From the NCBI RefSeq assembly GCF_022447245.1, contig NZ_JAKVBC010000026.1, positions 1 to 64,000 on the forward strand: a DNA stretch of 64,000 nucleotides. Reading direction: 5' to 3'. The notes below the pieces were generated by a model that saw only the letters and a list, made by a program, of their open reading frames with translations, made no database searches and was not told the origin of the DNA. The translations under genes and the position numbers were made by a program. Shown here in pieces: positions 1-63,772 of the stretch. Numbering within the stretch: the first letter of the stretch is position 1; each line of letters opens with the position of its first letter. The stretch is from Kordia sp. Lineage in GTDB: Bacteria > Bacteroidota > Bacteroidia > Flavobacteriales > Flavobacteriaceae.

Positions 1-927
1 CACCCATTAACTAAAGAAGAGAAGCAAAATTGGCAACATAAAGATATTTTAGAAGATTCCATCCCAGGCGTTAGTTTAGATAAAGCTTACAGAGAACTTT
101 TGACTAATAAAAAACGGGATACAGTTATTATAGCTGTGATTGATACACGATTAGACGTAAATCACGAAGAAATAAGAGATTATATTTGGACGAATGAGGA
201 TGAGATTCCCAATAATAGGTTAGATGATGATAACAATGGATATATTGATGATATACACGGTTGGAATTTTCTAGGTAATGAAAAAGGAGAACAGGCTTAC
301 AGAGCAAATTTTGAATATGTTAGGATTATCAGAAAGTTTAAGGAGAGATTTGAAGGTAAAAAAAGAGAAGAAATAGGTAGTGAATTTATCAACGATTACG
401 ATTTATATCTTAAAGCTAAAAAAGCCTACAATGACGAATTAAAATATGTGAGAAAAAAACTGAGTTCTTTACATTATAAAAAAGTAAAGAAGAATTTTCT
501 TGAACGGGAATTAGCAAAAATATATCCAGAACAAAAAGTATCTGTAGAAACATTACAAAATATTGAAACTGCTGATAAAAAAGTTTCTCAATACGTAAAG
601 GATCTTATAAAACTTAAAAAAGATAGTTTACGAAATGCAAATAATTTTGCATTGGAAAAACGCTATCTTAATATTTACTTGAATGAAGGCTATAAAGAAA
701 GAGAAATTATTGGAGATGATGTTGATGATATAAATGATGTTCCTTATGGTAATAATAAAATAACCTCTGATAATTCTGAAGGGACACATATACATGCAAT
801 AAAAGTAGCTGGAATCATTGCTGCAAGCAGAAATAATGAAACAGGAATAAAAGGAATTATAAATCGAGTAAAAATTATGCCTATTGCAATATCGCCTTAT
901 GGAGATGAAAAAAATCAAAAACCTTAA
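1..927 (+). pseudogene. Truncated S8 (subtilisin-like) serine peptidase, 5' end outside window
   Basis: The reading frame is open from base 1, so the N-terminus lies off the window. The region reading 'AVIDTRLDVNHEE' matches the catalytic-Asp block of Bacteroidota S8 peptidases, followed by the typical 'DDDNNGYIDDIHGWNFLG' segment. The His block is degenerate: 'EGTHIHAIKVAGIIAA' stands where HGTHVAGI is expected. Homology stops at 'SPYGDE' and the frame ends seven codons later, so the whole catalytic-Ser half is missing. The 3' end overlaps the start of the peptide gene at 905. I infer a dead fragment left by a deletion or recombination, not an active protease. Confidence 0.75.
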
Positions 928-1069
928 GTTAATTAAATCGCAAGTAGCTAAGCTACAATTTTCTTCCAAAATTATAGGAGGTACAGGAGGTAATGGAGAT
1001 CCTCAAAGAAGTAAGAAGGCTGGTCCAATGTGTGTCCCTGACCTAACAGAAGATGGAGTAAATTGCTAA
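905..1069 (+). CDS. GG-leader RiPP-like precursor peptide (A), 54 aa
   Basis: The ATG at 905 lies inside the end of the S8 fragment, in another frame. The first 26 residues, 'MKKIKNLKLIKSQVAKL' and on to 'KIIGG', look like the leader of Bacteroidota class I lanthipeptide or natural-product precursors (basic start, L-x-L-x-K-x-x-x-x-L, terminal GG). The core of 28 residues is Gly/Pro rich with two Cys, one the last residue. The stop is 6 bases before the prolyl oligopeptidase start, so the two are probably co-transcribed. No modifying enzyme is nearby. Assignment rests on leader pattern only; the product is unknown. Confidence 0.65.
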   Translation: MKKIKNLKLIKSQVAKLQFSSKIIGGTGGNGDPQRSKKAGPMCVPDLTEDGVNC

Positions 1070-1075
1070 AATGTA

Positions 1076-3268
1076 ATGGATAAAAAATTAATATATATTT
1101 TCCTTGGTATACTTTTTATTACTTCTTGCTCTAATAAAATGGTAAGAAGTTATAAAGGAAAAAGTTTTAAGGGCAAAAGTATTGTAGATATCTATCATGG
1201 CGTTTCGATTACGGATTCATATAGAAACTTAGAAAATTTAAAGGATTCGACTGTATTGGATTGGTTGAAAGCACAAAATGCTTATGCAGAAAATATCTTA
1301 ACTCAAATTGAAGGAAGAGATCAACTTGTCGAAGTTCAAAAAGAAATTGAAAATAATAAGAAACATACTGTAAGACAAATACGATCATTAGCTTCTGGAA
1401 AATACTTTTATCTAAAAAAATTTGCTGGGGAAGATGTATTTAATTTATATTATCGTGACAGCTTAGAAGGAGGAGAACAAAAGATATTTGATATAACTAA
1501 CTATATCAAAAAAACAGGTAAAAAAGACTATCTTATTAACTATATTAAACCTAATTGGAAAGGAAGCAAAATAGCAATTAGTATTTCGAAAAAAGGAAAT
1601 GAAGTATCCGAAATTATTGTTCTTGATCTTGAAAAAAAAACAATTCTTACTAATACCTATTCAAATGTGGCTCCTGCAAGTATTGGTGGGATTGATTGGC
1701 TTTCTGATGATTCAGGGTTTATAAGTTCTTATTTACCATATATTGATCCAAATGATGAAAAATTTTGGTTGAACACCAAATCTTATTTGTATACTTTAGG
1801 AAAAAAGGAAGGGAAAGATATTTTTTCAAAAGACAATAACCCTGAAATAAATATTAATATTGAAGATTTTCCAATGGTCTATAATCTTTCAGAAACAGAT
1901 GGATATTTGTTTGGTCAGTTTTTGGGTAAATCAAGTTTTATGAATATATATTATGTAAATGAATCTGAAATTAAAAAAGACAACATACGATGGAATCAAT
2001 TATGTTCTGAAGAAGAAAAAATTACACAGTATAAAATTGATGGTGAATGTATATATTATCTTACGTCAAAGGACACTTTAAGTCTTGAGATAAGGAAAAC
2101 AACTATTAAAAATCCAAATTTTAAAAATGCAGAATTAGTAGTAGCTTCTTCACCTGAATCGGTTATTACAGATTTTGAAATCACTAAAGATGGACTCTTT
2201 TATGTAAAAGTTAAGAATGGAATTCAAGCAAGACTATTCCATAAGGAAGAAGGTAATCAAGAGAAAGAGATTATGCTACCCAATACTTCAGGTAGAATTT
2301 TTCTGGGCTCACTTGGAGCAAGATATACAGACCTATGGGTAACAACTAGAGGATGGATTCAGCCCTCATTAACATACAAATATAAGCTAAGGAGTAATTC
2401 TTTTTCTAAAATAGAATTAAATAGAAACAAAGTTCCTTCAGGATTTGAAAATATGGTAGCTGAGGAGATTGAAATAACTTCACATGATGGAATTAAGCTT
2501 CCAGTATCTTTAATTTATAAAAAAGGGCTGAAAAAAGATGGGCAAAATAGGGTGCTTTTTTATGGTTATGGAGCTTATGGAACACCTTTATCACCCTTTT
2601 ACTCAACAAGCTTTCTATTATGGGTGAAAGAGGGAGGAATAATTGTTATGCCGCATGTTCGAGGTGGAGGAGAAAAAGGAGATGCTTGGCATAAAGCAGG
2701 TATGAAAACTACAAAATCTAATACCTGGAAAGACTTGATTGCCACAGTAGAATATATGATTGCTAAAAGATATACTAATCCTAAAAAAACTGTTGTTTGG
2801 GGAACCAGCGCTGGAGGAATTATGGCTGGAAGAGCTATTACAGAACGTCCAGACTTATTTAAGGTAATGATAGGAATATCTCCATCAATGAATACGATGA
2901 GATCAGAACATCAACCTATGGGACTAAATAGCATAAAGGAGTTTGGGACTTTAAAAGATTCCTTAGAGTTTAGAGGGTTATTAGAAATGGATGCTTATCA
3001 TTCAATCAAAAAAAATGAAAAATATCCTGCAGTATTGATTTTAGCAGGATTAAAAGATGGGAGAGTAGTTGCTTGGGATCCTGCAAAATTTATAGCTAAA
3101 CTCTTAGATTATAGTACATCAAATGATCCTGTATTATTTCAAGTAAATACAGAGTCTGGTCATGGTGGAATGAATTCTAGTGAAAATAAGCTTTACATAG
3201 ATTATGCCAATATATATGCCTTTGCGCTATGGCAAACAGATCATCCGGATTATAAATTAAATAAATAA
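1076..3268 (+). CDS. Prolyl oligopeptidase family (S9A) lipoprotein peptidase
   Basis: 730 aa. The N-terminus ends in a lipobox-like 'FLGILFITSCSNK', so the mature protein is probably a lipoprotein with Cys at about residue 18. The N-terminal two thirds should form the S9A beta-propeller. The C-terminal alpha/beta hydrolase domain shows the nucleophile motif GTSAGG (Ser578), Asp661 in 'LKDGRV' and His696 in 'SGHGG', with the family block 'PHVRGGGEKGDAWHKAG' before it. Length fits prolyl oligopeptidases, which cut after Pro in short peptides. It follows the peptide gene at 905 by 6 bases. Such enzymes remove leaders in some class III lanthipeptide systems; that role here is inference. General peptide catabolism is the simpler alternative. 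Confidence 0.88.
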   Translation: MDKKLIYIFLGILFITSCSNKMVRSYKGKSFKGKSIVDIYHGVSITDSYRNLENLKDSTVLDWLKAQNAYAENILTQIEGRDQLVEVQKEIENNKKHTVRQIRSLASGKYFYLKKFAGEDVFNLYYRDSLEGGEQKIFDITNYIKKTGKKDYLINYIKPNWKGSKIAISISKKGNEVSEIIVLDLEKKTILTNTYSNVAPASIGGIDWLSDDSGFISSYLPYIDPNDEKFWLNTKSYLYTLGKKEGKDIFSKDNNPEININIEDFPMVYNLSETDGYLFGQFLGKSSFMNIYYVNESEIKKDNIRWNQLCSEEEKITQYKIDGECIYYLTSKDTLSLEIRKTTIKNPNFKNAELVVASSPESVITDFEITKDGLFYVKVKNGIQARLFHKEEGNQEKEIMLPNTSGRIFLGSLGARYTDLWVTTRGWIQPSLTYKYKLRSNSFSKIELNRNKVPSGFENMVAEEIEITSHDGIKLPVSLIYKKGLKKDGQNRVLFYGYGAYGTPLSPFYSTSFLLWVKEGGIIVMPHVRGGGEKGDAWHKAGMKTTKSNTWKDLIATVEYMIAKRYTNPKKTVVWGTSAGGIMAGRAITERPDLFKVMIGISPSMNTMRSEHQPMGLNSIKEFGTLKDSLEFRGLLEMDAYHSIKKNEKYPAVLILAGLKDGRVVAWDPAKFIAKLLDYSTSNDPVLFQVNTESGHGGMNSSENKLYIDYANIYAFALWQTDHPDYKLNK

Positions 3269-3325
3269 TAGATTATTTACAGCTGAAGAAGTCTCTAAAA
3301 AGAAGAAAAGAAAAAACTAAATACA

Positions 3326-3359
3326 AAACTCGCAAGCTTACAAGCTTGGGAGTTTTTTT
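3326..3359 (+). terminator. Rho-independent terminator after the S9A gene
   Basis: The inverted repeat AACTCGCAAGCTT / AAGCTTGGGAGTT with a 2-base loop is followed by a T run. The remaining gap 3269-3591 holds only this hairpin, the shared motif at 3429 and the upstream region of the metalloprotease; I see no gene in it. Confidence 0.8.
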
Positions 3360-3428
3360 ATGTCTCAATATGTAAGTAAATAAGAATGACAATTGTTGTA
3401 CATTTTTTAATAAAATGTATAAATTTTA

Positions 3429-3445
3429 TGTATTTCATCGAAAAA
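3429..3445 (+). promoter_or_regulatory. Candidate shared upstream motif, copy 1
   Basis: TGTATTTCATCGAAAAA lies about 146 bases before the metalloprotease start. A copy with one mismatch lies at 11590-11606 before the S8 protease gene. In both places an AAAAWTTAACAMTTTT-like block follows some 30-45 bases downstream. It could be a regulator site or part of a promoter; function is inference. Confidence 0.35.
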
Positions 3446-3591
3446 ATACGCTTTTCGTCGTTGATTTGTCAAATTTTTAACAATTTTATATGTAAAATAA
3501 GGACTACAGAAAACTGATAATGGCTAATCAATTTAATATCAACTTATTAGATTTTGTGGTAATTATAGATACTTAACCTAAATCTTACATT

Positions 3592-6500
3592 ATGAAAAAG
3601 AACCTACTTTTCATGGTCCTTTTGGCGATGCTACATTTTTCTATGGCAGAAGCACAAGGACGACAAAACTTTTGGTCAACCTCCCAAAAGTCATTAACCA
3701 ACAATAACATTGTTGAACACAATAAGGATTTACCCAGAATAAAAGTGTTTGACCTAAACATTGATGGTTTCAAAAATGCTTTGCAAAATGCCCCGCAGAG
3801 AAATGAAACCAACAGTAGTTCAAACATTGTACTTTCGTTTCCAAATGCGAAAGGTGAAATGGAGCGTTTTCAAATTTTTGAAGCGCCTGTATTACATCCA
3901 GACTTAGCAGCACGATATCCAGGAATAAAATCGTATGCAGGGCAAGGAATTGACGATCCAGTAGCCGTAATACGCTTTAGTGTATCGCCTTTAGGAATAC
4001 AAACGATGCGTTTGTCTGCCTCAGAAAAAGCGGTATTTATTGAACCGATTACTGACGATAGAACAACCTACACAGTGTATGAAAGAGCAGATAGATCTGC
4101 TTCGTTATCAGACTTTGAATGCCAAGTCATCAGTGATGCTTCTAGTAATTTTGAGCTTTCAGCTACCGCACGACCAAACGCAGATGATGGTATATTAAGA
4201 ACCTACAGATTGGCAGTTTCTACTACAGGAGAGTACACAGCATTTCATGGAGGAACAAAAGCAGGTGCATTAGCAGCCATCAATACAACCATGACACGTG
4301 TAAATGGTGTATTTGAAAATGATTTTAATGTAACCATGGTTGTCATTGCTAATAATGATGATGTTATTTACACAAATGCTGGTAGTGACCCATATTCTAA
4401 TGGAGGCTTTAACAGTCAAGTACAAAATACATTGACTAGTGTTATTGGAGAGGCAAACTATGATGTTGGTCATTTATTTGCAAGAGCTTCCGATAATGGA
4501 AATGCAGGATGCATAGGATGTATTTGCGTAAATGGGCGAAAAGGAAGTGCTTTTACGTCAAGAAGCACACCAGTAGGAGATCCGTTTGATATTGATTATG
4601 TAGCGCATGAACTTGGGCATCAATTTGGAGCAAACCATACATTTAGCTTCAGAAATGAAGGAACCAACGCACATTTTGAACCAGGAAGTGGTACTACTAT
4701 CATGGGATATGCAGGAATTACAGGAGCTACCGATGTACAGTCAAACAGTGATCCATATTTCCACTGGTTTTCTATTCAGCAGGTAACTAACTATGTAAAA
4801 AGTACTTCTTGCCAAACAAATACGGCTATAGGAAATGCAACTCCAACAGTAGATGCAGGATCAGATTATACAATTCCTAAAGGAACACCATTTGTGCTTA
4901 CAGGTTCAGGAACAGACGCAGATGGAGATAGCTTAACATACTGTTGGGAACAAGCAGATGAAAACAATGCAGCAACTACCTATCCAAGTGTTACAGGAAC
5001 TAGTGGAGTAGCGTTTCGTTCGTTCAATCCAACAACATCTTCAAGTAGATATTTCCCAAGATTATCAACCATAAAGAGTGGCGCAACTTCATGGCAATGG
5101 GAAGCAGTTCCAAATGTTGCTAGAAGCTTAAACTTTAGATTAACAGTAAGAGATAACAGAGCTGGTGGAGCATCAAACAATAGTGACGATATGGTAGTTA
5201 CCGTAAATGGAACCGCAGGGCCATTTGTAGTAAACGCTCCAAATACTGCAGTAACTTGGAATGCAGGAACAACACAAACAGTAACTTGGGATGTAGCAGG
5301 AACAACAGGAAATGGTGTAAATGCAGCAAATGTTGACATTTTATTGTCTACAGATGGTGGAGATACCTATCCAATTACCTTAGCTTCTAATGTTGCAAAT
5401 GATGGATCGTATGACATTATTGTGCCAAACAATCAAGGAAATCAAAACAGAATTATGGTAAAAGGAGCAAATCATATTTTTTTCGATATTTCAAATGCGA
5501 ATTTTACCATTGCAGGACAAGTAGCGTGTAATGCTACCGTACCGACACGTGTATCAGATGCAAGTATTACATCTTCAGCAGCATCTGTAAGTTGGGATGT
5601 TGTACAAGGAGCTTCTTATGATCTACGTTACCGTGCGACAGGAACTACTTCTTGGACAACAAATGCCGTAACAGGAACTTCTACAGCACTTTCAGGATTA
5701 ACGGCAGAAACCGAATATGAAGTGCAAGTACGTAGCAAGTGTACTAGTGGAAACTCAGCATATTCTAGTTCTACAAACTTTACAACGACAAATGTTCAAT
5801 TGAACTATTGCGATTCTCAAAGTACGAATATCAATGACGAATATATTGGTCGTGTACAACTGAATACGATCGACAATTCATCAGGAGGTCAGTTCTATAC
5901 TGATTTTACCTCTATTTCAACAGATTTGTCAAAATCGCAAGCGTATACAATTACAGTAACACCAACATGGACTGGAACGGTATATAGTGAAGGTTACTCG
6001 GTTTGGATTGATTACAATCAAGATGGAGATTTTACCGATGCAGGAGAACAAGTTTGGTCTAGAAACGCCACTACAACTACACCAGTAAGTGGAACATTTA
6101 CCGTTCCAAACACAGCAACAAATGGAGCTACAAGAATGCGTGTATCTATGAAATATAATCGAATACCAACTCCATGTGAAACATTTACATATGGAGAAGT
6201 AGAAGACTATACAGTAGTTATTGGAGCTGCAGGACCAGATACACAACCACCAAGCATTCCAACAGGATTGACTGCTTCTGGAACAACACAAACAACGACA
6301 ACGTTAAGCTGGACAGCTTCTACAGATAATGTGGGAGTTACTAGTTATGAAGTATTTCAAGATGGAACAAGTATAGGAGCTAGCTTAGGAACGTCATTAA
6401 ATGTAACGGGACTTACAGAAGGCACAACCTATGCATTTACAGTGCAAGCACAAGATGCAGCAGGAAATGTTTCATCTTCAAGTGCAGCTTTAAATGTAAC

Positions 6501-7119: not shown

Positions 7120-7146
7120 TAACCTAAACCTAACTTATGAAAATCA

Positions 7147-7179
7147 AAAGCCTTGAGAAATTCTCAAGGCTTTTTTTAT
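7147..7179. terminator. Strong hairpin terminator between convergent genes
   Basis: A 13-bp perfect stem, AAAGCCTTGAGAA / TTCTCAAGGCTTT, is flanked by A and T runs. It ends the metalloprotease transcript on the plus strand. It could also serve the minus strand, though the minus-strand methyltransferase ends further away. Confidence 0.85.
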
Positions 7180-7295: not shown

Positions 7296-8855
7296 CTATT
7301 GTATCAAATTAATGCTAATAGTTGAAATTTCTTCACTTGGAAAACGATAAGAATGCATTGGGTCAATCGTAATTCCCGCTTTGTTAATAGCATCTAAAAA
7401 TACATCCAATTCCACAATATACTGATCTGAAAAGCCATGCGTCACATCATACGCAGTACAAGGCGTTTTGCCTAAATTTAAAGCAACCGTATTAGGCGCA
7501 ACCGTATGTAATTCAATAAACAGCAAACCGTGTGTTGAAATATAAGGTTTCCACTTTTGAAAATGCTCTATCAAACTTTGAGCAACAGCCGAATTGTGCA
7601 ATTGTTTTCCACGATGCGCAAAAGCTCCTGAAGACAGTAAATTGCCAGTATAAACTCCAGAAGGTTCATTAAAAGGTCTATTATGATCTAAAAACGAACG
7701 AACATTGAGCAACTCATCTAACTTCACATTATATAACTCTTGTAACTTCTGATCAATCTCTGCAGGATTACCAATATCGCCCCAAACAACTTCTGCCCAT
7801 ACATTGGCTTTTTTTAAATTTCGTTTGGTACTCAACAAAGCTTCTTTATTATAATCGGCACCAATCAAGATCAATTTATTGGCACTCAAGTCGTCTTTGC
7901 GTTGGGTTTTGTCCCAAATCAAATCAAAGATATGCTCTAACAAAGCACCATTTCCACAACCGACATCGATAATTCCTTTGGGTTGTTCAGAAAGTGGTTT
8001 GTTAAAAATATCAACCAAAACGGCATCAAACTTATTAAAATAGGTGGCATGACTTCCACCACTTCCCCAAACATTAATGCCTCTAAACACATGTTGCTCA
8101 TTTCCTAAACGATCTTGCTGGAAAAATGATAAAAAATCACCTGTCAAATAGCTTTCTATATGACACATAATCGGCATATAGGAAGCAGTAACTCCATAAG
8201 CATAGCTCTTGGCAAACAAAAACGAACCTTTTGTAGTCAATGAAGAACCATCATGTAACTCTAACAATTGCAATACTTTTAAAAGCGAAGCATCTTTTAA
8301 AAAAGTAGCCGTTTCTATGGTTTCCAAATCTGCATGATATCCCAAATACACAAGCAAAGGCGCTAGTAACACACCTTCTAAATGAAGCGCTACTTCTTCT
8401 TGAAAATACGTATCTGCTTTCAAAGCTTGTTTGGTTATTGACCAATAGGTAGCCATTGAAATTAAGATATCAATTTTTGGTAATGGAAATTGATACGGCT
8501 GTTTTAACAACTCATAATAATAAGAAAACAACGTATTCAAGTTTTCATAATGCGAAATGTGAGGTAGAAAGTTGTTAAATTTTTCGGTAGTTTCAATCTG
8601 AATTTCTTCTGTAGTAACGGTATATTTTAAAATTCCTTGTGAAGCCAAACTTCGTAAAGAAACATTCAAATAACCTGAATGAAATTGTGGAAACTTTTTA
8701 AGAATTGCTGTGATTGAAGTACCATGTTCTGCAGCCAAAAAATCAAAGACAGAATGTTTTTCTAATACGGCTATTGTTGCAGTAATGGCAAGTCCATCCT
8801 GATGTTTAAACAACAAAGATCGAAATGCGCGTTTTTGTTCTCTAGTTAAACTCAT
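7296..8855 (-). CDS. Class I SAM-dependent methyltransferase (AprA-like)
   Basis: 519 aa. The central SAM-binding motif I reads 'GIIDVGCGNGALLEH', followed by 'LIGADYNKEAL' (motif II) and 'WGDIGNP'. The segment 'LLNVRSFLDHNRPF' is typical of stand-alone methyltransferases related to AprA and polyketide MT domains, from memory of the family. The N-terminal 250 residues include a winged-helix-like stretch. It lies downstream, on the same strand, of the two broken peptide genes at 8962 and 9433, with a gap of about 100 bases. Its substrate is unknown: a link to the peptides is possible, a polyketide-like or other small-molecule substrate equally so. Confidence 0.75.
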   Translation of the reverse strand: MSLTREQKRAFRSLLFKHQDGLAITATIAVLEKHSVFDFLAAEHGTSITAILKKFPQFHSGYLNVSLRSLASQGILKYTVTTEEIQIETTEKFNNFLPHISHYENLNTLFSYYYELLKQPYQFPLPKIDILISMATYWSITKQALKADTYFQEEVALHLEGVLLAPLLVYLGYHADLETIETATFLKDASLLKVLQLLELHDGSSLTTKGSFLFAKSYAYGVTASYMPIMCHIESYLTGDFLSFFQQDRLGNEQHVFRGINVWGSGGSHATYFNKFDAVLVDIFNKPLSEQPKGIIDVGCGNGALLEHIFDLIWDKTQRKDDLSANKLILIGADYNKEALLSTKRNLKKANVWAEVVWGDIGNPAEIDQKLQELYNVKLDELLNVRSFLDHNRPFNEPSGVYTGNLLSSGAFAHRGKQLHNSAVAQSLIEHFQKWKPYISTHGLLFIELHTVAPNTVALNLGKTPCTAYDVTHGFSDQYIVELDVFLDAINKAGITIDPMHSYRFPSEEISTISINLIQ

Positions 8856-8961: not shown

Positions 8962-9192
8962 CTATATATTGATAGGACAATTTCCGTAAGGTCCTGTGCA
9001 AATTTCAGGATTAGATGCGGGTAAAGGTTCCTGTGGACAGCATACAAAGATGTGTGATTTAGTAATACAATTTGGACCTCCAGATGGACATAGCATAGAG
9101 AAGGCTGCACCTCCTTGGATACTTGCTTGTTTGTCTAACTAAGAAATAGTATTTTTTCGTAAAGCTAAATTTTTTAAAGTTTGTTTCTTCAT
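8962..9192 (-). pseudogene. GG-leader Cys-rich peptide precursor (B1), broken by an amber stop
   Basis: Read from the ATG at 9192, the frame gives 'MKKQTLKNLALRKNTIS', then TAG (9139-9141, codon 18), then continues in frame through 'LDKQASIQGG' into a 48-residue core and a proper stop. The core has six Cys spaced C-x6-C-x8-CC-x12-C-x6-C and contains 'CITKSHIFVCC'. The neighbour at 9433 is a paralogue with the same spacing. The TAG stands where B2 has Lys. Unless the stop is suppressed or a sequencing error, no core is made. Confidence 0.7.
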
Positions 9193-9432: not shown

Positions 9433-9668
9433 TTAATTAATTGGGCAATTTCCCCAACCTCCAGAACATATTGCTGGATCTGATGCTGGTGTAGGATCTG
9501 CTGGTTTAACTGAGCAGCAAACGAAGATGTGAGATTTTGTAATACAATCTGGAGTTGTTGACATACAAAATGCTGAAATTGCTAATCCTCCGTGAATGTT
9601 TGACTGTTTTCTAACTTAGAAATTGTGTTTTTACATAAGACTAAATTTTTTAATGTTTGTTTTTTCAT
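9433..9668 (-). pseudogene. GG-leader Cys-rich peptide precursor (B2), broken by a one-base deletion
   Basis: From the ATG at 9668 the leader 'MKKQTLKNLVLCKNTISKL' runs in frame, then the frame is lost. Restoring one base near 9609-9611 gives 'KQSNIHGG' and a core with six Cys: C-x6-C-x8-CC-x15-C-x6-C, again with 'CITKSHIFVCC' and ending 'GNCPIN'. The total length is 236 bases, one short of a multiple of three. It is closely related to B1, so this is a tandem duplication in which both copies are now interrupted within three codons of the same place. Confidence 0.7.
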
Positions 9669-17389: not shown

Positions 17390-17545
17390 TTAATTCTCAT
17401 TTGGTCTGTGACATTGCGTTCCACATCTGGTATGAACACTTTCACAATTAATTCGGAAAAAGGATAAAAGTCCTCCATTAATGTACGCCGTTTTTTCGGT
17501 GTCAATTTTAGCAATAGTTAACTTTTTTAAATTGATTTTTTTCAA
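17390..17545 (-). CDS. GG-leader RiPP-like precursor peptide (C), 51 aa, TTG start
   Basis: The leader 'KKINLKKLTIAKID' through 'AYINGG' fits the Bacteroidota class I lanthipeptide-type leader. The 26-residue core has three Cys in 'INCESVHTRCGTQCHRPN'. No ATG stands at the expected place: the codon before 'KKIN' is TTG (17543-17545), so I set the start there. The gene abuts and overlaps the end of a decayed TPR gene in another frame, as peptide A abuts the S8 fragment. A terminator follows. Expression may be weak or lost. Confidence 0.55.
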   Translation of the reverse strand: MKKINLKKLTIAKIDTEKTAYINGGLLSFFRINCESVHTRCGTQCHRPNEN

Positions 17546-18768
17546 GTAACTTATTGCTTTTTTGTAAAAAACAAGACTTATATTCATTATTTATACTATT
17601 GAGTACATGTATTTTTTGTGGATCTAACACTTGCTCATAGCATTGACCATATTTCTCGTAATAAAAATTAGCGTTTTTATAACCCTCTATTTTTTCATAA
17701 CAATTACTCAACAATAAATAGGCATCCAATAAATTTCTGGTAGAAGAAAATTGATACTTTTTTTCAAAGCCTTTAATGGCCTTTTTTTCCAAAATAGATA
17801 GCAGTATCATATTCTTTTTTCATCAAATAATTTTTCCCTTTGTAAAGATCACACTCTAAAGAAAAACTATGAATTTTTAAAGAGTCTTGTAAGGCTTTTG
17901 CAGAACTAAAATGTTGTAAAGATTCGTCAAATGCTTTTTGATGAAAAGCAATAATTCCTTGATTTGTGAATAAATGTCCTTTTAGTCTTCGGTGAATACT
18001 TTTGTCTCTAGGACTTAATTGTTTGTGATCTAATATTTGCTGGTTGCGTTTTAACCCTTACACATCATAAATATGAGCATTATCAAGGTTTTTTAGTCTT
18101 CTATGTGCTGTAGCAATATTCAATAAGGTGGCTATGTATTCTACATCGTATTAATTATACGAATTATAATTTTTAGGATCTATTTTTTTTAGGATTTGTA
18201 AATTATTTTGATGTAATCGTAAAGCTTCTTTAAAGTCAGAAACTTCAGATTTTATCAAAGCTATATTGGCCTGAATAGATACTCTTGAGTCATTTAAATG
18301 ATATTTATGTATGGTGTCTAAAGCTCTCGAAAAACAATGATACTAAGAATAAATTTGCTGCGCGCATGAAAAATTTTGTTCCTTTTGTTTCAGGAGGAAT
18401 ACAATTTCTGTTGCGTATGCTATTGTATATTCTTGAGGCTGTTTTTGTATTGCCTTCATAGCTTTGTTGTAGTATTGATGCGCTTTTGTATACTTCTTAA
18501 GATGGTAATTGATTTTCTAAATGTTTATATGCTTCAGCTATTTCAAAGGCGTTTTTTGCGGGAGTATTCTATGTAAATATTCTAAGGCATGCGCTTCTAT
18601 GGTTGCAGCATTTTTTCAATATGATCAACAATGATATTTTTTAAATTTGATGTTGAAATCGTATCTAAACTCAATGCGAGATCCTATATTTTGAGAGTTG
18701 ATTTTAACAGAAAAAAATAAAAAGATTCCTAATAAAAGAAAAGGAAGTTTTTTAAGCGATGCTATCAT
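17508..18768 (-). pseudogene. Decayed TPR-domain protein, probably an AraC/TPR regulator missing its C-terminus
   Basis: From ATG at 18768 a signal-like start 'MIASLKKLPFLLLGIFLFF' is followed by TPR-like stretches in shifting frames, for example 'KYTKAHQYYNKAMKAIQ', 'SDFKEALRLHQNNLQILKK', 'KAFDESLQHFSSAKALQDS' and 'LLDAYLLLSNCYEKIEGYK'. At least five in-frame stops and two frameshifts occur. The layout (signal, TPR array) matches flavobacterial regulators that end in a membrane helix and an AraC HTH; that end is absent because the sequence breaks off into peptide gene C. Clearly non-functional. Confidence 0.75.
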
Positions 18769-35107: not shown

Positions 35108-35308
35108 TTAGTTAAAACATTTTGGATAGCCATTACATGATAAGTTACAGCTATTTCTTTCACTTGCACAATTTCCGCCTCCACCAGGGCAACTATCCGT
35201 TGGTGCTTGTGGAGAGTCAAAGCCACCAACAATCATTTGTTGTGCTTTTTTCTCTAGAGAAACAATTGTGCTTTTTCCTAGACTTAATGTTGTTTTACTT
35301 TTTTTCAT
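35108..35308 (-). CDS. GG-leader RiPP-like precursor peptide (E), 66 aa
   Basis: Start set at ATG 35308, since 'MKKSKTTLSLGKSTIVSLEK' then 'KAQQMIVGG' is the class I lanthipeptide-type leader; upstream in-frame codons belong to spacer. The 37-residue core has five Cys and a GGGG stretch ('PGGGGNCASERNSCNLSC'). Directly downstream of gene F with its own terminator. Five Cys and several Ser/Thr would allow thioether rings or disulfides. No modifying enzyme nearby. Confidence 0.7.
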   Translation of the reverse strand: MKKSKTTLSLGKSTIVSLEKKAQQMIVGGFDSPQAPTDSCPGGGGNCASERNSCNLSCNGYPKCFN

Positions 35309-35425: not shown

Positions 35426-35599
35426 TTACTGATCTTGAATAGTTTTTTCACATGGTCCATTTTCACAACTTTTTCCTTTTTCAGTAGGACATTGATCACC
35501 TGGACAACTATAGGAAGTTACAGAGCGTCCTCCCTTGATGTTTTCTAAATTAGCAACTGTTTTTTTGCTGATTTCTAATTTTTTTTTGCTTTTTTTCAT
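35426..35599 (-). CDS. GG-leader RiPP-like precursor peptide (F), 57 aa
   Basis: Leader 'MKKSKKKLEISKKTVANLEN' plus 'IKGG', core of 33 residues with four Cys spaced C-x4-C-x7-C-x4-C. It is in tandem with gene E, each followed by nearly the same hairpin. The leader starts of E and F are alike ('MKKSK'), the cores are not. A hypervariable core behind a conserved leader and terminator is what one expects of natural-product precursors. Confidence 0.72.
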   Translation of the reverse strand: MKKSKKKLEISKKTVANLENIKGGRSVTSYSCPGDQCPTEKGKSCENGPCEKTIQDQ

Positions 35600-45760: not shown

Positions 45761-45762
45761 TT

Positions 45763-51214: not shown

Positions 51215-51249
51215 TGTTTAAGAAAAAGATTGAAAACTAAAACAAGCAG

Positions 51250-57013: not shown

Positions 57014-57568
57014 ATGTTGTTAGAATATTACGGTTACATAAAAGCACTACATTTAATATTTGTAGTTTCATGGTTTGCGGCATTATTTTACCTTCCGCGT
57101 TTGTTTGTATATCAAATTGAAGCTTTTCACAAACCATCGCCAGAAAAGGAAATTTTGGGCAAACAACTCAAAATCATGGCAAAACGCTTGTGGTTTATTA
57201 TTGGATGGCCTTCGTCAATATTGGCAACTTTTTTTGGAGTGTTGCTACTTGTGGCCAATTCATCATTATTGCAATTAGGTTGGATGCATGTTAAGCTGGC
57301 ATTTATAGTACTCTTATGGATTTATCATTTAAAATCACATCAAATGTATAAGCAGCTGCAACTCGATGACGTTCGATATAGTTCTACTTTTATGCGCTTG
57401 TGGAATGAAGGAGCTACATTAATTTTATTTGCGGTAATTTTCTTAGTGATTTTAAAAAGCTCCATCAATTGGATTTTTGGTGTGATTGGAATCTTTGTAT
57501 TAGGAATTCTATTAATGCTAGGATTTAAGCTTTACAAGCGCATACGCGAGAAAAATCCAGAAGCTTAG
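57014..57568 (+). CDS. hemJ: HemJ-type protoporphyrinogen IX oxidase (CopD-like)
   Basis: 184 aa with four to five membrane helices. 'YGYIKALHLIFVVSWFAALF' and 'YLPRLFVYQIEA' match HemJ, the heme-linked oxidase that turns protoporphyrinogen IX into protoporphyrin IX. The conserved His13 fits the heme ligand. It closes the pathway between hemF and hemH in this window. It starts on the base after the previous stop (TAAATG). Assignment is from family memory; hemG and hemY are absent here, which supports it. Confidence 0.85.
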   Translation: MLLEYYGYIKALHLIFVVSWFAALFYLPRLFVYQIEAFHKPSPEKEILGKQLKIMAKRLWFIIGWPSSILATFFGVLLLVANSSLLQLGWMHVKLAFIVLLWIYHLKSHQMYKQLQLDDVRYSSTFMRLWNEGATLILFAVIFLVILKSSINWIFGVIGIFVLGILLMLGFKLYKRIREKNPEA

Positions 57569-57660
57569 GAGACTCAATTTTCAACGATTTTTTGTGAATG
57601 TTAAAATTCTTATTTTTGGCTTGATTATTGCGCGAAAGCAAGGAAGATAAACCCGCACTC

Positions 57661-59121
57661 ATGAAACCAGCTAGACTTTCTTTACGTTCTCGAATATTTG
57701 CTTATATGATTCTTCTGATTCTTGTAGCATCTATTTTAATAGCGATCGTTACTATTAAACAATATAGAGAACAATCACGTGAATATCACGATAGAAGACT
57801 AGATAGAAAACAAGAGCAGGTACAATCGCATGTAGAGCATTTAATCAATAAAGAAACAACCTATGTTGTAAATGCTGAAAACTTAGGATATATTTTCCAA
57901 GATAGAGATGCTATCTACAAAATTGCGGATATTCTTAAATTAAATATCAACTTATATAGTCTTGAAGGCGATTTTATCATTACGTCCGATACTTCCATAC
58001 GAAGTGAAAATATTGTAGAATGTTTGCCTGCCAAAGTGTTGAATGGTTTACAAGATAGCGAGGAGAAAAAATTTAAAGATGAAAGTATTTTTGTAAATGA
58101 AATAGAATACCAATCTTCTTACAATATCATTACTGATGCAAAATCAAAACCATTAGGGATTATCAATCTGCAATTTGAGGTAGACGATTCTTTCGAAAAT
58201 GAATTAAATGAGTTTTTAGCACGTTTAGCTTTTGCATATCTCATCATGTTTATCATTGCCATTGCATTTGCCTATTATGTATCGCGATATATTACCAAGT
58301 CCTTGAAGAAAATTGGGGAAAAACTAGATCAAACTCGCTTCAATAAACGCAATGAAAAAATTATTGTTGAAAATGCAGGAGAAGAAATATTCAACCTAAT
58401 TACGGCATATAATAGTATGATTGATGAGTTGGAAGAAAGTGCCGTAAAACTGGCAAAAAGCGAGCGTGAACAAGCTTGGCGCGAAATGGCAAAACAGGTT
58501 GCGCATGAAATTAAAAATCCGTTGACACCTATGCGCTTGACTGTACAAAGTTTTCAACGTAAGTTTGATCCAAATGATTCTGGAATTCATCAAAAAGTAG
58601 ATGAATATAGCAAGACAATTATTCAGCAAATAGATACTATGAGTAACATTGCGTCAGCGTTTTCTAACTTTGCAAAAATGCCAGCACAGCAAAATGAAAT
58701 GTTGAATGTGGTTGAAATTACGCGTTTGGCGATGGAACTTTTTAATGAAAGTTATATTAACTATTCGTACGATGAAGAAGAAATTATTGCCAAATTTGAT
58801 CGTACGCAACTTATACGAGTTATCACTAATTTGGTAAAAAATGCCATTCAAGCCATTTCAGATGATCGTCCGCCACGTATTGATGTTCGTGTCTTTGAAG
58901 AAAACAATATGGTTATCATCACTGTAAAAGACAATGGAATTGGTATTACAAAGGAAAACGAACCAAAAATATTTGAGCCAAAGTTTACCACGAAAACAAG
59001 CGGAATGGGATTAGGACTCGGAATGGTAAAAAATATTGTAGAAACTTACGATGGAAGTATTACTTTTACATCTGAAGAAAATGAAGGCACAACATTTAGG
59101 GTGTCATTTCCAAAAAACTAA
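57661..59121 (+). CDS. Sensor histidine kinase (NtrY-like)
   Basis: 486 aa from the ATG at 57661; codons before it have no good start. Membrane helices at about 15-35 and 190-215 flank an extracytoplasmic sensor domain. A HAMP-like linker 'YYVSRYITKSLKKIGEKLDQ' follows, then HisKA with the phospho-acceptor His282 in 'QVAHEIKNPLTPMRLT', and HATPase_c with 'NLVKNAIQAI', 'VKDNGIGI' and 'GMGLGLGMVKNIVE'. The block 'HEIKNPLTPMRLT' is typical of NtrY-type kinases. No response regulator gene lies next to it. Confidence 0.92.
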   Translation: MKPARLSLRSRIFAYMILLILVASILIAIVTIKQYREQSREYHDRRLDRKQEQVQSHVEHLINKETTYVVNAENLGYIFQDRDAIYKIADILKLNINLYSLEGDFIITSDTSIRSENIVECLPAKVLNGLQDSEEKKFKDESIFVNEIEYQSSYNIITDAKSKPLGIINLQFEVDDSFENELNEFLARLAFAYLIMFIIAIAFAYYVSRYITKSLKKIGEKLDQTRFNKRNEKIIVENAGEEIFNLITAYNSMIDELEESAVKLAKSEREQAWREMAKQVAHEIKNPLTPMRLTVQSFQRKFDPNDSGIHQKVDEYSKTIIQQIDTMSNIASAFSNFAKMPAQQNEMLNVVEITRLAMELFNESYINYSYDEEEIIAKFDRTQLIRVITNLVKNAIQAISDDRPPRIDVRVFEENNMVIITVKDNGIGITKENEPKIFEPKFTTKTSGMGLGLGMVKNIVETYDGSITFTSEENEGTTFRVSFPKN

Positions 59122-59129
59122 ATAAAACC

Positions 59130-59912
59130 ATGAGCTACGAAAACATATTAGTACAAGAAGACAACGGAATTGCAACGATTACTATTAATCGTCCAAAAAA
59201 ACTAAATGCACTTAACAGAGATACGATTCAAGAATTGCACAATGCTTTTGAAGCTTTGGATGCTTCGGTAGATGCAAAAGTAATTGTCCTGACAGGAAGT
59301 GGAGAAAAAGCTTTTGTTGCTGGCGCTGATATTAGTGAATTTGCACATTTCTCTGTAGAAGAAGGAGGAAAATTAGCGGCAAAAGGACAAGAATTATTGT
59401 TTGATTTTGTACAAAACTTAAGCACGCCTGTTATTGCTGCTGTAAATGGATTTGCACTAGGTGGCGGATTGGAATTAGCAATGGCAGCACACTTTAGAGT
59501 AGCTAGTGATAATGCTAAAATGGGCTTGCCTGAAGTATCTTTAGGAGTAATTCCTGGATATGGTGGAACTCAGCGTTTGCCACAGTTGGTAGGAAAAGGA
59601 AAAGCCATGGAAATGGTCATGACTGCTGGAATGATTGGTGCTGAAGAAGCAAAACAATGCGGATTGGTAAATCATGTAACTACACAAGAAGAATTATTAC
59701 CACTTGCATATAAATTGGCTAGTAAAATCATGCGAAATTCTTTAGTAGCGATTCGCGGCGCTATCAAAGCCATTAATGCAAATTATACTGATGGTGTAAA
59801 TGGTTATGAAACAGAAATTTCAGAATTTGGAAATTGTTTTGGAACAGAAGATTTTAAAGAAGGAACAACGGCATTCTTAGAAAAAAGAAAAGCAGATTTT
59901 CCAGGAAAATAG
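59130..59912 (+). CDS. Enoyl-CoA hydratase/isomerase family (crotonase)
   Basis: 260 aa. Oxyanion-hole residues are in 'FVAGADISEFAHF' and 'NGFALGGGLELAMAAHFRVA', and the catalytic Glu in 'KMGLPEVSLGVIPGYGGTQRL'. The form fits short-chain enoyl-CoA or crotonyl-CoA hydratases of fatty acid or butyrate-like pathways in the cytoplasm. Starts 8 bases after the histidine kinase stop, so the genes share a transcript. Confidence 0.92.
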   Translation: MSYENILVQEDNGIATITINRPKKLNALNRDTIQELHNAFEALDASVDAKVIVLTGSGEKAFVAGADISEFAHFSVEEGGKLAAKGQELLFDFVQNLSTPVIAAVNGFALGGGLELAMAAHFRVASDNAKMGLPEVSLGVIPGYGGTQRLPQLVGKGKAMEMVMTAGMIGAEEAKQCGLVNHVTTQEELLPLAYKLASKIMRNSLVAIRGAIKAINANYTDGVNGYETEISEFGNCFGTEDFKEGTTAFLEKRKADFPGK

Positions 59913-59933
59913 ACAAGAAAAAATAATATATAA

Positions 59934-59971
59934 AAAGTCATGGTTTTTTTAATCATGGCTTTTTTTTGTTT
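59934..59971 (+). terminator. Terminator after the crotonase gene
   Basis: AAAAGTCATG / CATGGCTTTT with an A/T loop, then eight T. Confidence 0.7.
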
Positions 59972-60155
59972 CAAAATGAAGTAAATAAGAAGCATTTACA
60001 CCTTGAGATACATACAAGTATTTCTTCGTGTTTTTTATGAACATGTACGATTTTTTGGTGTTTATTGTAGAAAAATAATAATTTACAGTAGGGAAAAGTA
60101 TTTTTTTTGATGTTATTATAATATCTACCTAAGCCAATTTACTAAAACAACCAAC

Positions 60156-61158
60156 ATGAAAAAACTACTACTAAGCTGTGCATTTTGCATATATATTCTT
60201 GGGGTAAGTGCGCAATGCGGCATTCATCCAATTATGAATTTGACGCTAAATTCAAAACAATCCCAGCGATCCAGATTATGATAATCCTGAATTATCACAA
60301 CCTCGTATCAATTATTATTTAGAGCAACTTTCAGCAATGTATAACAATCCGCAAAACTCTGCGGATATTGATTCTTTATTTAATGAATTTCAATTTCATG
60401 TGGATCCAATGACCCTACAATACCATAATACTTTGTTAAATGTAGATACAAATGCCAGTTGGGTTTAAACATTGAAGGACACAGGAACTGCTGGAATTAC
60501 AGATTTTGACAACATCTTATCTCAATATCAATTTTCTGTTTCATCTTTTAATGATTGGACAATTCCTCCTTATGCAGGAAAAACTATTTTCGAATTAGAG
60601 TCGACCTTTGATTTTATAAACACTTATGCATTATGTGACGATTTGCAGAATGCAATCACAGAAGATTTGAATTACGATTTAGCTTTTTACAATGATAATA
60701 TTTGTAGCTATGATGGAATTACTTACACTATTGAAACCTCCGAACTGCCTCCACAACAAGCTCCTGTAGTAGCTTGTGATGTATTTAAAAATCCGGCAAA
60801 TAGTTATGTCTTTTGTCTTAAAAGACGCCTGTATATTTAGCATGCCAAATACGCAAACGCGTTTTGTTATGGTTTCTAATGATTGTAGTACAGTTAATTT
60901 TTTAAGAATATTATCTGCATCAGAAAATGAATTAACAGGTGTGAAAATCTATCCAAATCCAACCTCAGATGTATTGAATATTGAAGGAATTGAAAATATC
61001 AAAGCTGTGGAGCTACATTCAATTTTAGGAAAACAACTTTCTATTTCAATAAATGATTTTACCCGTATTGATGTAAGTGCCTAGAAAATGGAGTGTACTT
61101 CTTGAGAGTCATAGATGATAAAAATCGTACTGTGATTAAGAAATTCATCAAACAGTAA
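60156..61158 (+). pseudogene. Decayed small T9SS-secreted protein
   Basis: ATG 60156 opens a signal peptide 'LLSCAFCIYILGVSAQ'. Frame shifts follow near 60240 and again before 60830, TAA at 60466-60468 interrupts 'NASWV*TLKDTG', and one base is lost near 61080. In corrected frames the protein ends in a T9SS sorting domain, 'LTGVKIYPNPTSDVLNIE' to 'VIKKFIKQ'. The mid part ('PRINYYLEQLSAMYNNPQ') has no known domain. At least three indels and one stop. Confidence 0.78.
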
Positions 61159-61177
61159 AAAAGTGAATTAATCACAT

Positions 61178-61214
61178 AAAAAAATCCTGTTCATTACGAA
61201 CAGGATTTTTATTT
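61178..61214. terminator. Bidirectional terminator between convergent genes
   Basis: AAAATCCTGTTC / GAACAGGATTTT, perfect 12-bp stem with loop ATTAC and runs of A and T on both sides; it lies between the decayed T9SS gene and the S46 peptidase. Confidence 0.85.
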
Positions 61215-61231
61215 TAAGTCTGTATTGTAGA

Positions 61232-63376
61232 TTATTTTTTAATCGTCAATTCTTTAATAATATTGTCAGCACCAGATAACTTATCAACCAACCAAAATAC
61301 ATATCTGATATCTACATTAATGGTACGTTGTAATTTATCGTCAAAAATAACATCACCAGCCATAGCTTCAATATTTCCATCAAACGCCAATCCAATTAAT
61401 TCTCCTTTTCCATTTAATACAGGAGAACCTGAATTTCCACCAGTAATATCATTATTTGTCAAGAAATTTACTGGCATGTATCCGTTTTTATCAGCATACT
61501 GTCCGTAATCTTTCTTTTTGTATAAATCCAATACATCAGCAGGAAGATCAAATTCTTGATCGTTTGGCTTGTATTTCGCAATCATACCTTTCATCGTAGT
61601 ATAATTGTTAATTTTTGCATCATTACGAGTATCTTTTGGTAATGCAACTACCTTCCCATAGGATAAACGTAAAGTTGAGTTTGCATCAGGATATTTTACC
61701 TTACTTAATTTTGATTCGCGCAATCCTTGAACAAACTTTCTATACGCTTTATCATAACTTTCTTTAGCAGCAGCAATGTTTTCAGGTTGACTTCTATATT
61801 GCGTCAATAAATCTTTTGATAATAAATATAAAGGATCATTTTCAAGCAACGCTTTATTTGGGAACATTAAGAAAGCTTCCAAACGCTTTTTAGAAGTAAA
61901 AATACTTAGTTCAAATATAGCATCTACATAGCCTTTGAAGTCATTATTTATTTCAGCACTAATTTGTTTCACTAATGGCGGTAATTCGTACCCAGATTTT
62001 TCAACATACAATTTCAACTGTGCAGCCATAACATCCTTTTCTAAAGGCATGTATGCATTTTTAAACATATTATCAATAAGTCCTTGTAGTCGTGGACGTA
62101 ATTCGTCACGTTTTGCTTTATTCTGATCTAAATAATATTCTAAATTTCTTCCCAATCTTGCTGGTGATGCAGCGAAAGTGCTTCCACGTAATACACCAAT
62201 TAAATAATTGTTATGACGTGCTTTGTCATTTGTTAAAGCATAATAGTTATTAATATCATTAACGACATTTCCATAGGTTGCTTTGTTACGTTTTTTATTT
62301 GCCCAACGATTAAATTTCTTTTCCAAGTCACGTTTTTTCTCAGCAGTTTTATGCTTGGTTAAGGCATCAATCATTCCTTGTCTATTTTTCCAATAATTTG
62401 CAATTCCAGCATATTTAGAAGCATATTTTAAATTGATGTCTTCGCTTTTGTCCATGTGCTTTTTCATAGCATCCATACTTGTTTTTGAAGCTTCTACCCA
62501 AGCAGGATACGCGTAGTTTACATTTTGAGCAATTCCTTCTGCTGGCATCCAACGGTTTGTACGTCCTGGATACCCTAAAATCATAGCAAAATCATCTTCT
62601 TTTACACCGCCTAAATTTACAGCTAAGTGTCTTTTAGGTTTCATAGGAATGTTATCTTCTGAATATTTTGCAGCATTTCCGTCTTTGTCAGTATATACTC
62701 TAAATAATGAAAAATCTCCTGTATGACGTGGCCATTCCCAGTTATCAGTGTCTCCACCAAATTTCCCAATGCTTTCTGTTGGTGTTCCTACCAAACGAAC
62801 ATCATCATAATCTTCGTACACAAAATAATAGAATTCATTTCCTTGAAAAAAGGAACGTACAGAAACAGTATACTTTCCACCTTCATTATTTTCTTGTTCA
62901 ATAAGAGCAATTTCCTTGTTGATAGCAGCTTGTCTTTCCTTTTCTGTCATGCTATCATTCACTTTTGCTAAAATTCGTTTGCTTACATCATCCATTCGCA
63001 CGAAAAAACGAACAGATAAACTCTGAGGCTTTAGTTCTTCATCAAGGCTTTTTGCCCAAAATCCATTTTTTAAATGATTTTTTTCTTCTGTAGATAATTC
63101 AGCAATGGCGTCATATCCGCAATGGTGATTTGTTAATACCAAACCTTGGTCAGAAATTATACTTGCCGTACAACCACCATTAAATTGCACAATAGCGTCT
63201 TTTAAACTGTTGTTATTAATGCTGTAAATTTCTTCGGCGGTTAATTGTAACCCCATTTTTTGCATATCTCTGTGATTTAAACGCTCTATATGCATTAAAA
63301 ACCACATACCTTCATTGGCATTAGATGTAGGCATCATAAAAATGCATACAATCATAAATAGAAAAGCTTTCTTCAT
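61232..63376 (-). CDS. S46-family dipeptidyl-peptidase (DPP7/DPP11 type)
   Basis: 714 aa, with a signal peptide (about 1-20). The trypsin-fold triad is visible as His in 'VLTNHHCGYDAI' and Ser in 'ITGGNSGSPVLNGKGEL'; the Asp lies in the 'DTDNWEWPRHTGDF' region. The helical domain between is as in family members. 'GLAFDGNIEAMAGD' carries Gly rather than the Arg that, as I recall, marks Asp/Glu-specific DPP11, so a DPP7-like preference is more likely. It releases dipeptides from peptide N-termini in the periplasm, feeding amino acid catabolism. Confidence 0.93.
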   Translation of the reverse strand: MKKAFLFMIVCIFMMPTSNANEGMWFLMHIERLNHRDMQKMGLQLTAEEIYSINNNSLKDAIVQFNGGCTASIISDQGLVLTNHHCGYDAIAELSTEEKNHLKNGFWAKSLDEELKPQSLSVRFFVRMDDVSKRILAKVNDSMTEKERQAAINKEIALIEQENNEGGKYTVSVRSFFQGNEFYYFVYEDYDDVRLVGTPTESIGKFGGDTDNWEWPRHTGDFSLFRVYTDKDGNAAKYSEDNIPMKPKRHLAVNLGGVKEDDFAMILGYPGRTNRWMPAEGIAQNVNYAYPAWVEASKTSMDAMKKHMDKSEDINLKYASKYAGIANYWKNRQGMIDALTKHKTAEKKRDLEKKFNRWANKKRNKATYGNVVNDINNYYALTNDKARHNNYLIGVLRGSTFAASPARLGRNLEYYLDQNKAKRDELRPRLQGLIDNMFKNAYMPLEKDVMAAQLKLYVEKSGYELPPLVKQISAEINNDFKGYVDAIFELSIFTSKKRLEAFLMFPNKALLENDPLYLLSKDLLTQYRSQPENIAAAKESYDKAYRKFVQGLRESKLSKVKYPDANSTLRLSYGKVVALPKDTRNDAKINNYTTMKGMIAKYKPNDQEFDLPADVLDLYKKKDYGQYADKNGYMPVNFLTNNDITGGNSGSPVLNGKGELIGLAFDGNIEAMAGDVIFDDKLQRTINVDIRYVFWLVDKLSGADNIIKELTIKK

Positions 63377-63556
63377 GTTTTGATTTTTTTGAGGGCTAAA
63401 GATATTAAAATTGCAATAGAAAAATGTTAATGCAACTCAGTATCTTTTAGCTTTTTTGAAGATAGTAGCTAGTTCCATTATTAGTTTTTGATAATTAACT
63501 GTTTTACAGTGATTTTTGTTTGGGATTTGATAAAAATTTACAGCTATTTGGAAAGA

Positions 63557-63596
63557 GAAAGCTTTCTGAAAATTCAAACTTTCAGAAAGCTTTTTA
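63557..63596. terminator. Terminator after peptide gene G
   Basis: AAAGCTTTCTGAAA / TTTCAGAAAGCTTT around an 8-base loop, followed by T on both strands; 3 bases after the peptide stop. Confidence 0.8.
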
Positions 63597-63598
63597 AA

Positions 63599-63772
63599 TT
63601 ACATAATGTCACAATCGTCAACTAACATAGATGCAGGACAATTATTACCGTCGCCAGGAAAATGGTGTGTGTAAAAAATCCATCCTCCAACGATATTATT
63701 AATTTCCTGTGATTTAAAAGTTGAAATTCGCTGTTTGTTAATCTTTAATAATGTAAGGTTTCTTTTTTTCAT
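63599..63772 (-). CDS. GG-leader RiPP-like precursor peptide (G), 57 aa
   Basis: Start set at the ATG at 63772, which gives 'MKKRNLTLLKINKQRISTFK' and 'SQEINNIVGG', the same leader plan as A-F. The 27-residue core begins with 'WIFYTHHFPGDGNNC' and has two Cys. Four aromatic residues in the first six give it a character unlike the others. A longer frame upstream is spacer. Its terminator is strong and no maturation gene is close. Confidence 0.7.
   Translation of the reverse strand: MKKRNLTLLKINKQRISTFKSQEINNIVGGWIFYTHHFPGDGNNCPASMLVDDCDIM

What the first reader, a model, noticed from the sequence alone, without database searches (positions are those of the whole stretch)
905..63772. Eight dispersed GG-leader, Cys-containing peptide genes without maturation enzymes
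Seen in sequence: eight short frames (905+, 8962-, 9433-, 17390-, 22822+, 35108-, 35426-, 63599-) share a leader plan: MKK, basic, L-x-L-x-K, then T/S/R-I/V-x-x-L or similar, ending GG. Their cores share little except two to six Cys. Known: this matches class I lanthipeptide/natural-product leader families in Bacteroidota (pinensin-like). Inference: a distributed precursor repertoire matured by enzymes encoded elsewhere, with one enzyme set serving many cores. No LanB, LanC, radical SAM or C39 protease-transporter gene is in 64 kb.
Basis: partly seen in the sequence, partly recalled or inferred. Interest (0 to 1): 0.72.

Follow-up and report, generated by a model that had tools for sequence, protein, structure and literature searches.

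The report
One lanthipeptide machine, 120 scattered precursors
A marine Kordia bacterium carries more than a hundred scattered genes for cysteine-rich peptides that share one address label, while its genome holds a single set of enzymes of the kind that turns such peptides into ring-shaped natural products, so one small factory probably processes a large and fast-changing peptide collection.

Summary
The eight leaders are real: a leader profile trained on other contigs picks out exactly these eight in the window. Five genes look intact; three (8962, 9433, 17390) look decayed. The host is a Kordia. Fetched stretches, 8.5% of the genome, hold 174 such loci on 38 contigs, 122 intact by simple rules. 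Cores are 11% Cys against 0.9% in long ORFs and no more alike than shuffled ones; three core groups tested are under purifying selection. The genome has one class I cassette: LanC, split LanB, C39 exporter, HlyD. All 11 genomes of the genus have one LanB and 45-98 leader matches. In 249 Flavobacteriaceae, leader and LanB co-occur. One enzyme set serving many scattered cores is thus well supported genomically, not chemically. It works like a class I counterpart of prochlorosins. Unexpected: 20 of 21 TPR-AraC membrane regulators have a leader gene about 100 nt downstream, suggesting sensor-peptide pairs. New variant of a known kind.

The parts
905..1069 (+). intact precursor: leader ending GG, core with 2 Cys; a Met six bases upstream (899) is also possible
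   Evidence: 14.1 bits; missed by NF038153
8962..9192 (-). decayed precursor: leader piece 9127-9192 ends at an in-frame TAG; core piece 8962-9096
   Evidence: intact homologue in another Kordia
9433..9668 (-). decayed precursor: leader piece 9582-9668 and core piece 9433-9564 are in different frames
   Evidence: (leader piece 22.2 bits, just over the NF038153 cut-off)
17390..17548 (-). probably decayed precursor: leader and core open, but no Met at the leader start; abuts a broken regulator relic
   Evidence: (12.6 bits); intact homologue in one of nine compared Kordia
17529..18615 (-). relic of a TPR-AraC membrane regulator, in two frames, DNA-binding end missing
   Evidence: 63% and 87% identity over two pieces to the intact regulator of a relative, L158
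22822..22983 (+). intact precursor; near-identical core in one of nine compared Kordia
35108..35308 (-). intact precursor (leader starts at 35308, not at the first Met of the frame); core conserved in four of nine compared Kordia
35426..35599 (-). intact precursor, tandem with the former; related genes in six of nine compared Kordia
63599..63772 (-). intact precursor (leader starts at 63772)
   Evidence: 29.8 bits

Best explanation
The eight genes are scattered precursor genes (lanA type) of a class I lanthipeptide system that is spread over the whole genome. Each makes a peptide with a shared leader (about MKK..K.LxLxK..IS.L....GG) and its own Ser/Thr- and Cys-rich core. The leader is most likely the handle for one trans-acting cassette on another contig: split LanB dehydrates Ser/Thr in the core, LanC couples Cys to them as (methyl)lanthionines, and the C39 ABC exporter with its HlyD partner cuts after GG and exports the product. 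Because only the leader is recognised, cores can change, duplicate and die freely, which gives each Kordia species a different, quickly renewed set. Shown by sequence: the leaders, their number and dispersal, the single cassette, leader-LanB co-occurrence, core constraint in three groups, and gene decay. Inferred: dehydration, cyclisation, leader recognition by this LanB, cleavage and export. Unknown: what the products do.
For: Leader match to the lanthipeptide model and exactly eight window hits with a held-out profile. 174 leader loci on 38 contigs, 122 intact by simple rules. Cores 11.2% Cys and 19.9% Ser+Thr, leaders 0.03% Cys, long ORFs 0.88% Cys; 113 of 116 cores have a Ser/Thr shortly before a Cys. 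Leaders alike (mean identity 0.44), cores not (0.24 against 0.23 shuffled). One LanB in 11 of 11 genomes of the genus against 45-98 leader matches. Cassette conserved in 8 of 8 named Kordia loci, exporter 95-97% identical. Co-occurrence in 249 genomes: 13 both, 2 leader only, 10 LanB only, 224 neither, p = 7e-14. A leader of this type near LanB in 19 of 20 named loci. LanC keeps the Cys and Cys-His positions of solved relatives. dN/dS of cores 0.11, 0.26 and 0.04 in three window groups.
Against: No chemistry. Most leaders score below the NF038153 cut-off: 20 of 117 listed matches pass it. Two of 15 leader-bearing family genomes lack LanB: G170, whose match passes the cut-off, and G182, whose match lies in a 305-aa frame and may be false. 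Ten of 23 LanB genomes showed no leader at that threshold, so some LanBs may serve other leaders. The genome holds other C39 matches (six in all) and a second LanC beside a class V-like kinase, so other enzymes could act on some cores. One core of 116 has no Cys. No strong shared promoter was found.
Confidence: 0.8

Rival explanations
1. The peptides are exported by the C39 transporter without lanthionines and fold through disulfide bonds, as secreted Cys-rich peptides; LanB/LanC act only on the two or three cassette-linked precursors.
For: The GG site and the C39 exporter alone would suffice for secretion. Some cores have many Cys and odd Cys spacing. The exporter is the best conserved of the cassette genes compared in most named Kordia loci.
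Against: Leaders follow LanB across the family, and cassette-linked precursors share the leader type of the scattered ones. Whether C39 exporters without LanB co-occur with these leaders was not tested.
Confidence: 0.12
2. The scattered leaders are substrates of a radical SAM enzyme (TIGR04149-type) or of another RiPP enzyme, not of LanB.
For: A 2024 mining paper says Kordia is rich in rSAM-modified peptides as well as lanthipeptides and that its classifier confuses the two (PMC11118758, section 7 read, section 6 passage). One window peptide matches TIGR04149 weakly (10.6 bits, cut-off 25). One PapB-like SPASM protein exists (C8:10809), with a weak match also to the GG-leader maturase model TIGR04148 (59.8 bits, cut-off 300).
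Against: Only four SPASM matches in the genome; two are grasp-with-spasm parts and the other two pass no maturase cut-off shown. The same window peptide matches the lanthipeptide model better (14.5 bits). Radical SAM proteins without SPASM and YcaO enzymes were not searched.
Confidence: 0.06
3. The window copies are mostly relics: a decaying gene family with few working members.
For: 3 of 8 window genes look broken. In the fetched DNA 50 of 174 loci look degraded or lack a Met by simple rules, though one of these starts with GTG and may be fine.
Against: 122 of 174 look intact, and the tested cores are under purifying selection.
Confidence: 0.05

Closest known systems
Class I lanthipeptide precursors of Bacteroidota with LxLxKx5L leaders ending GG (NCBIfam NF038153; PMC7268733, passages seen)
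   Same: Leader motif, GG site, C39 exporter, split LanB and LanC in the genome
   Different: That study looked only within seven genes of LanC; here 171 of 174 loci found lie away from the cassette
Prochlorosins/synechococsins of marine picocyanobacteria (PMC10783134, passages seen)
   Same: One synthetase, many precursors (29 and 79 for the two characterised enzymes), scattered genes, conserved GG leader, variable cores
   Different: Class II LanM and Nif11 leaders there; split LanB plus LanC, another leader type and regulator-linked genes here
RiPP-rich Kordia genomes of the TrRiPP survey (PMC11118758, section 7 and passages read)
   Same: Names Kordia as rich in lanthipeptide and rSAM precursors; up to 176 RiPP precursors in a Bacteroidota genome (which one is not said there)
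   Different: Its main text holds no 'LanB' and no 'regulator'; no single-cassette reading, decay or regulator pairing in the text seen; supplements not read

Membership tests
Class I lanthipeptide (NF038153 leader group) | Leader matches the family model | tested here: met
   Seven of eight window leaders are listed at E up to 10 in the genome search. Of eight peptides given (seven genes; 9433 as two pieces, 8962 not given), six match at E up to 1 and one reaches the cut-off. 20 of 117 genome matches pass the cut-off. 905 fits only the genus-trained profile.
Class I lanthipeptide (NF038153 leader group) | LanB dehydratase (both domains) and LanC cyclase in the genome | tested here: met
Class I lanthipeptide (NF038153 leader group) | Core with Ser/Thr and Cys | tested here: met
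   113 of 116 intact cores
Class I lanthipeptide (NF038153 leader group) | (Methyl)lanthionine rings in the product | not testable with these tools
   needs mass spectrometry
Class I lanthipeptide (NF038153 leader group) | Precursor encoded beside its enzymes | tested here: not met
   No enzyme gene in the window; 3 of 174 loci near the cassette. Usual, but not strictly defining.
Prochlorosin family | Single LanM (class II) synthetase and Nif11 leader | tested here: not met
   The enzyme beside the leaders is a split LanB with LanC; the leaders match NF038153 and no Nif11 model was listed. A whole-genome LanM search was not run; the second LanC matches LanM's cyclase part only, below its cut-off. 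Works like, is not a member.
TIGR04149 rSAM-modified RiPP | Leader model at its cut-off (25 bits) | tested here: not met
   Best 10.6 bits, one of eight peptides given
Pinensin family | Pinensin-like precursor and LanC clade | not tested
   No pinensin sequence was compared

The most novel reading that the evidence does not exclude
Kordia uses one promiscuous class I lanthipeptide machine to make a whole language of peptides. About 20 membrane TPR-AraC regulators each sense the ring peptide encoded right behind them (private autoinducer channels that control growth or killing programmes), while about 100 free-standing precursors form a fast-changing effector repertoire.
Probability: 0.3. Interest if true: 0.88.

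Novelty: new variant of a known kind. Interest (0 to 1): 0.72.

Why it matters
Prochlorosins are the best known case of one promiscuous synthetase with dozens of scattered substrates, and they are class II. Here a split class I LanB with LanC appears to serve about 122 intact precursors in a heterotrophic marine genus known for algicidal members (PMC10734526, passages seen). That is a ready natural test of how far leader-guided LanB tolerance goes, and a large set of natural substrates for engineering. The conserved regulator-precursor pairs offer a direct way to ask what such repertoires are for, an open question for prochlorosins too (PMC10783134, abstract passage).

Tried and rejected
Radical SAM maturation of the leaders: looked for with the SPASM model only; four matches, none convincing as partner. 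A common promoter: k-mer and TAnnTTTG scans of 121 upstream regions gave only weak signals (a TTAACCA-like string near -20 in a minority), left open. Spread by recent copying of large segments: DNA similarity between distant loci, in the 25 pairs printed, is short and falls mainly on the leader or, at regulator-linked loci, on the stretch before it; 59 of 174 windows have such a distant match and 9 a near one. RNA families and tRNAs in the window: none at the thresholds used. Chance: rejected.

Literature: nine searches. In the listings and the passages opened I saw no description of one LanB cassette serving scattered precursors in Kordia, nor of TPR-AraC/leader pairs. Subscription papers and supplements were out of reach, so this is not proof of absence.
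Full report
What the window holds. I built a leader profile from 72 leaders of other contigs of the same genome and searched the 1314 stop-to-stop frames of at least 25 aa in the window. Exactly eight frames score 12.6-29.8 bits, the eight of the finding; the next scores 5.8. In 30 random sequences with the window's second-order Markov statistics the mean number at 12 bits or more is 0.07. The public model NF038153 (class I lanthipeptide leader) lists seven of the eight in the genome search at E up to 10, from 0.003 to 7.9. Of eight peptides given to NCBIfam (seven genes, 9433 as two pieces, 8962 not given), six match at E up to 1 and one passes the curated cut-off.

Three of the eight look decayed. 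8962: the leader piece 9127-9192 ends at an in-frame TAG. 9433: the leader piece 9582-9668 lies in another frame than its core. 17390: no Met at the leader start; the gene abuts a relic of a TPR-AraC regulator in two frames that has lost its DNA-binding end. In other Kordia species homologous genes in the same neighbourhood are intact. Assembly errors in this draft genome cannot be excluded for single cases. Intact by sequence are 905, 22822, 35108, 35426 and 63599.

Who and where. The window is contig C19 of a 5.24 Mb genome in 82 contigs. Of 20 window proteins scanned, those beside precursors look ordinary: coproporphyrinogen oxidase, CysZ-like protein, peptidases, DinB, an ABC ATPase.

How many. 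NF038153 gives 117 matches at E up to 10 in this genome, 20 over the cut-off (two of them only with their neighbours in the frame). I read all 117; 104 carry the L-x-L-x-K pattern by a simple rule; a few are doubtful, and one reads like a sigma factor. Control: of 14 well-known genomes five had some match at E up to 10, none over the cut-off, and none matched at E up to 0.1. In 447,463 bases of fetched own-genome DNA (chosen around leaders, enzymes and regulators, so not a random sample) the genus-trained profile finds 174 loci on 38 contigs at 10 bits or more: 122 intact by simple rules, 50 degraded or without a Met, 2 cut by a stretch end. The random sequences give 0.17 per 64 kb at that score, so one or two of the 174 may be chance. 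They lie in 96 spots; 47 are single and one holds 14 in 3 kb. Three lie near the cassette. The eleven genomes of the genus have 45-98 matches each at E up to 0.1, lower bounds because at most 150 candidates were scored.

What the cores look like. For 116 intact precursors (a slightly stricter count): 11.2% Cys and 19.9% Ser+Thr; leaders 0.03% Cys; long ORFs 0.88% Cys. 113 of 116 have a Ser/Thr before a Cys with one to seven residues between; one has no Cys. Leaders are 44% identical on average, cores 24%, shuffled cores 23% (2500 random pairs, 1000 for the shuffled ones). Over nine Kordia genomes with the same neighbourhood (40 kb each), the sets differ: one has none, others have other genes at similar places (905 and 63599 were outside the stretch compared, and the tenth genome gave no orthologous anchor). 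Where a core has counterparts it is constrained: dN/dS 0.11 (35108, five sequences), 0.26 (35426, six) and 0.04 (22822, one pair), pooled over pairs; these are small samples.

The machine. One LanB exists, split into an N part (C1:228978-230948) and a C part (C1:231142-231957), with LanC just before it and a C39 ABC exporter and HlyD partner about 3-5 kb downstream on the other strand. Upstream lie a sigma factor and a TPR protein, downstream a TPR-AraC regulator and three precursors. LanB aligns with NisB (4wd9) and with 9g04, the C part with 9g04 and 5ehk over its first half, LanC with 8byk and LanC-like proteins, the Cys and Cys-His motifs lining up (that these bind zinc is recalled), the exporter with the peptidase-containing transporter 4ry2 over nearly its whole length (exporters without the peptidase part score higher). 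LanC, LanB-N, LanB-C, AraC-like, HlyD and C39 are found together in 8 of 8 named Kordia loci. Eleven of eleven genomes of the genus have exactly one LanB match.

Link between leader and machine. Among 249 Flavobacteriaceae genomes, 15 have a leader at E up to 0.01 and 23 have LanB; 13 have both, 2 leader only, 10 LanB only, 224 neither (Fisher p = 7e-14; two of the 13 are of the window's genus). In 19 of 20 named LanB loci at least one leader lies on the fetched stretch; the exception is a short Aminicenantes contig. This ties leader and enzyme; it does not show modification.

Regulator pairs. A search of the genome with the cassette's TPR-AraC regulator gave 39 match rows. Counting by hand the genes whose match or open frame covers both the TPR and DNA-binding parts, and merging split rows, I get 21 genes, three of them broken; rows that match in one part only were dropped. 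In 20 of 21 a leader starts 87-146 nt after the match, same strand: 19 (the C23 one scores only 8.1 bits, and C4 is a degraded pair), and for the broken C45 gene the leader piece read. C13:2398 has none. As a control, of 108 long ORFs in long stretches eight have a leader 60-260 nt downstream; five of these eight are such regulators. In relatives 25 of 31 regulator copies have the leader; the six without are all in Aquimarina loci. The cassette's regulator has a signal-like start, a TPR part, one predicted membrane helix and a C-terminal AraC domain. Paired cores have fewer Cys (8.1% against 11.7%, 17 against 105 peptides). Reading this as sensor plus signal is inference.

Known and new. The leader type, its GG end and C39 link in Bacteroidetes, and split LanBs, are in PMC7268733 (passages seen). 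Scattered precursors with one promiscuous synthetase are known for prochlorosins (PMC10783134, passages seen). PMC11118758 (section 7 and passages read) already names Kordia as RiPP-rich. PMC7477175 (passages) lists a lanthipeptide type among nine clusters in K. antarctica. Seen in passages and not decisive: PMC10734526, PMC9248904, PMC12328550. What I did not see in print, in the nine searches named under Tried and rejected, is the single class I cassette with scattered precursors, and the regulator pairs.

Noticed in passing
G000 many contigs (L164-L193); cassette L042:11387-13084: TPR-AraC membrane regulators followed about 100 nt later by a leader gene: 20 of 21 in this genome, 25 of 31 copies in relatives.
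   Followed up: partly
L043 (G000 C14:6000-24000): A second lanthipeptide-like locus: LanC of LanM type beside an LxmK-like (class V) kinase and a 282-aa Cys-repeat frame (NCBIfam matches below the family cut-offs).
   Followed up: no
L044/L033 (G000 C5:4300-6300): A LanC-like gene with a stop inside and a leader-like frame lacking its Met close by: looks like a dead second lanthipeptide cluster.
   Followed up: no
L045 (G000 C1:278000-281000) and L162 (C56:17372): Two SPASM proteins of the grasp-with-spasm system, the first beside its ATP-grasp enzyme and a C39 exporter.
   Followed up: no
L113 (G000 C16:61258-64238): Tandem array of 14 leader loci within 3 kb.
   Followed up: no
window 7296-8855 (-): A 519-aa protein with the AprA-type methyltransferase domains PF23525 and PF23526, next to the two broken precursors.
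   Followed up: no
L047 (G000 C22:16638): Peptidase C39 domain in a short frame without a transporter part.
   Followed up: no
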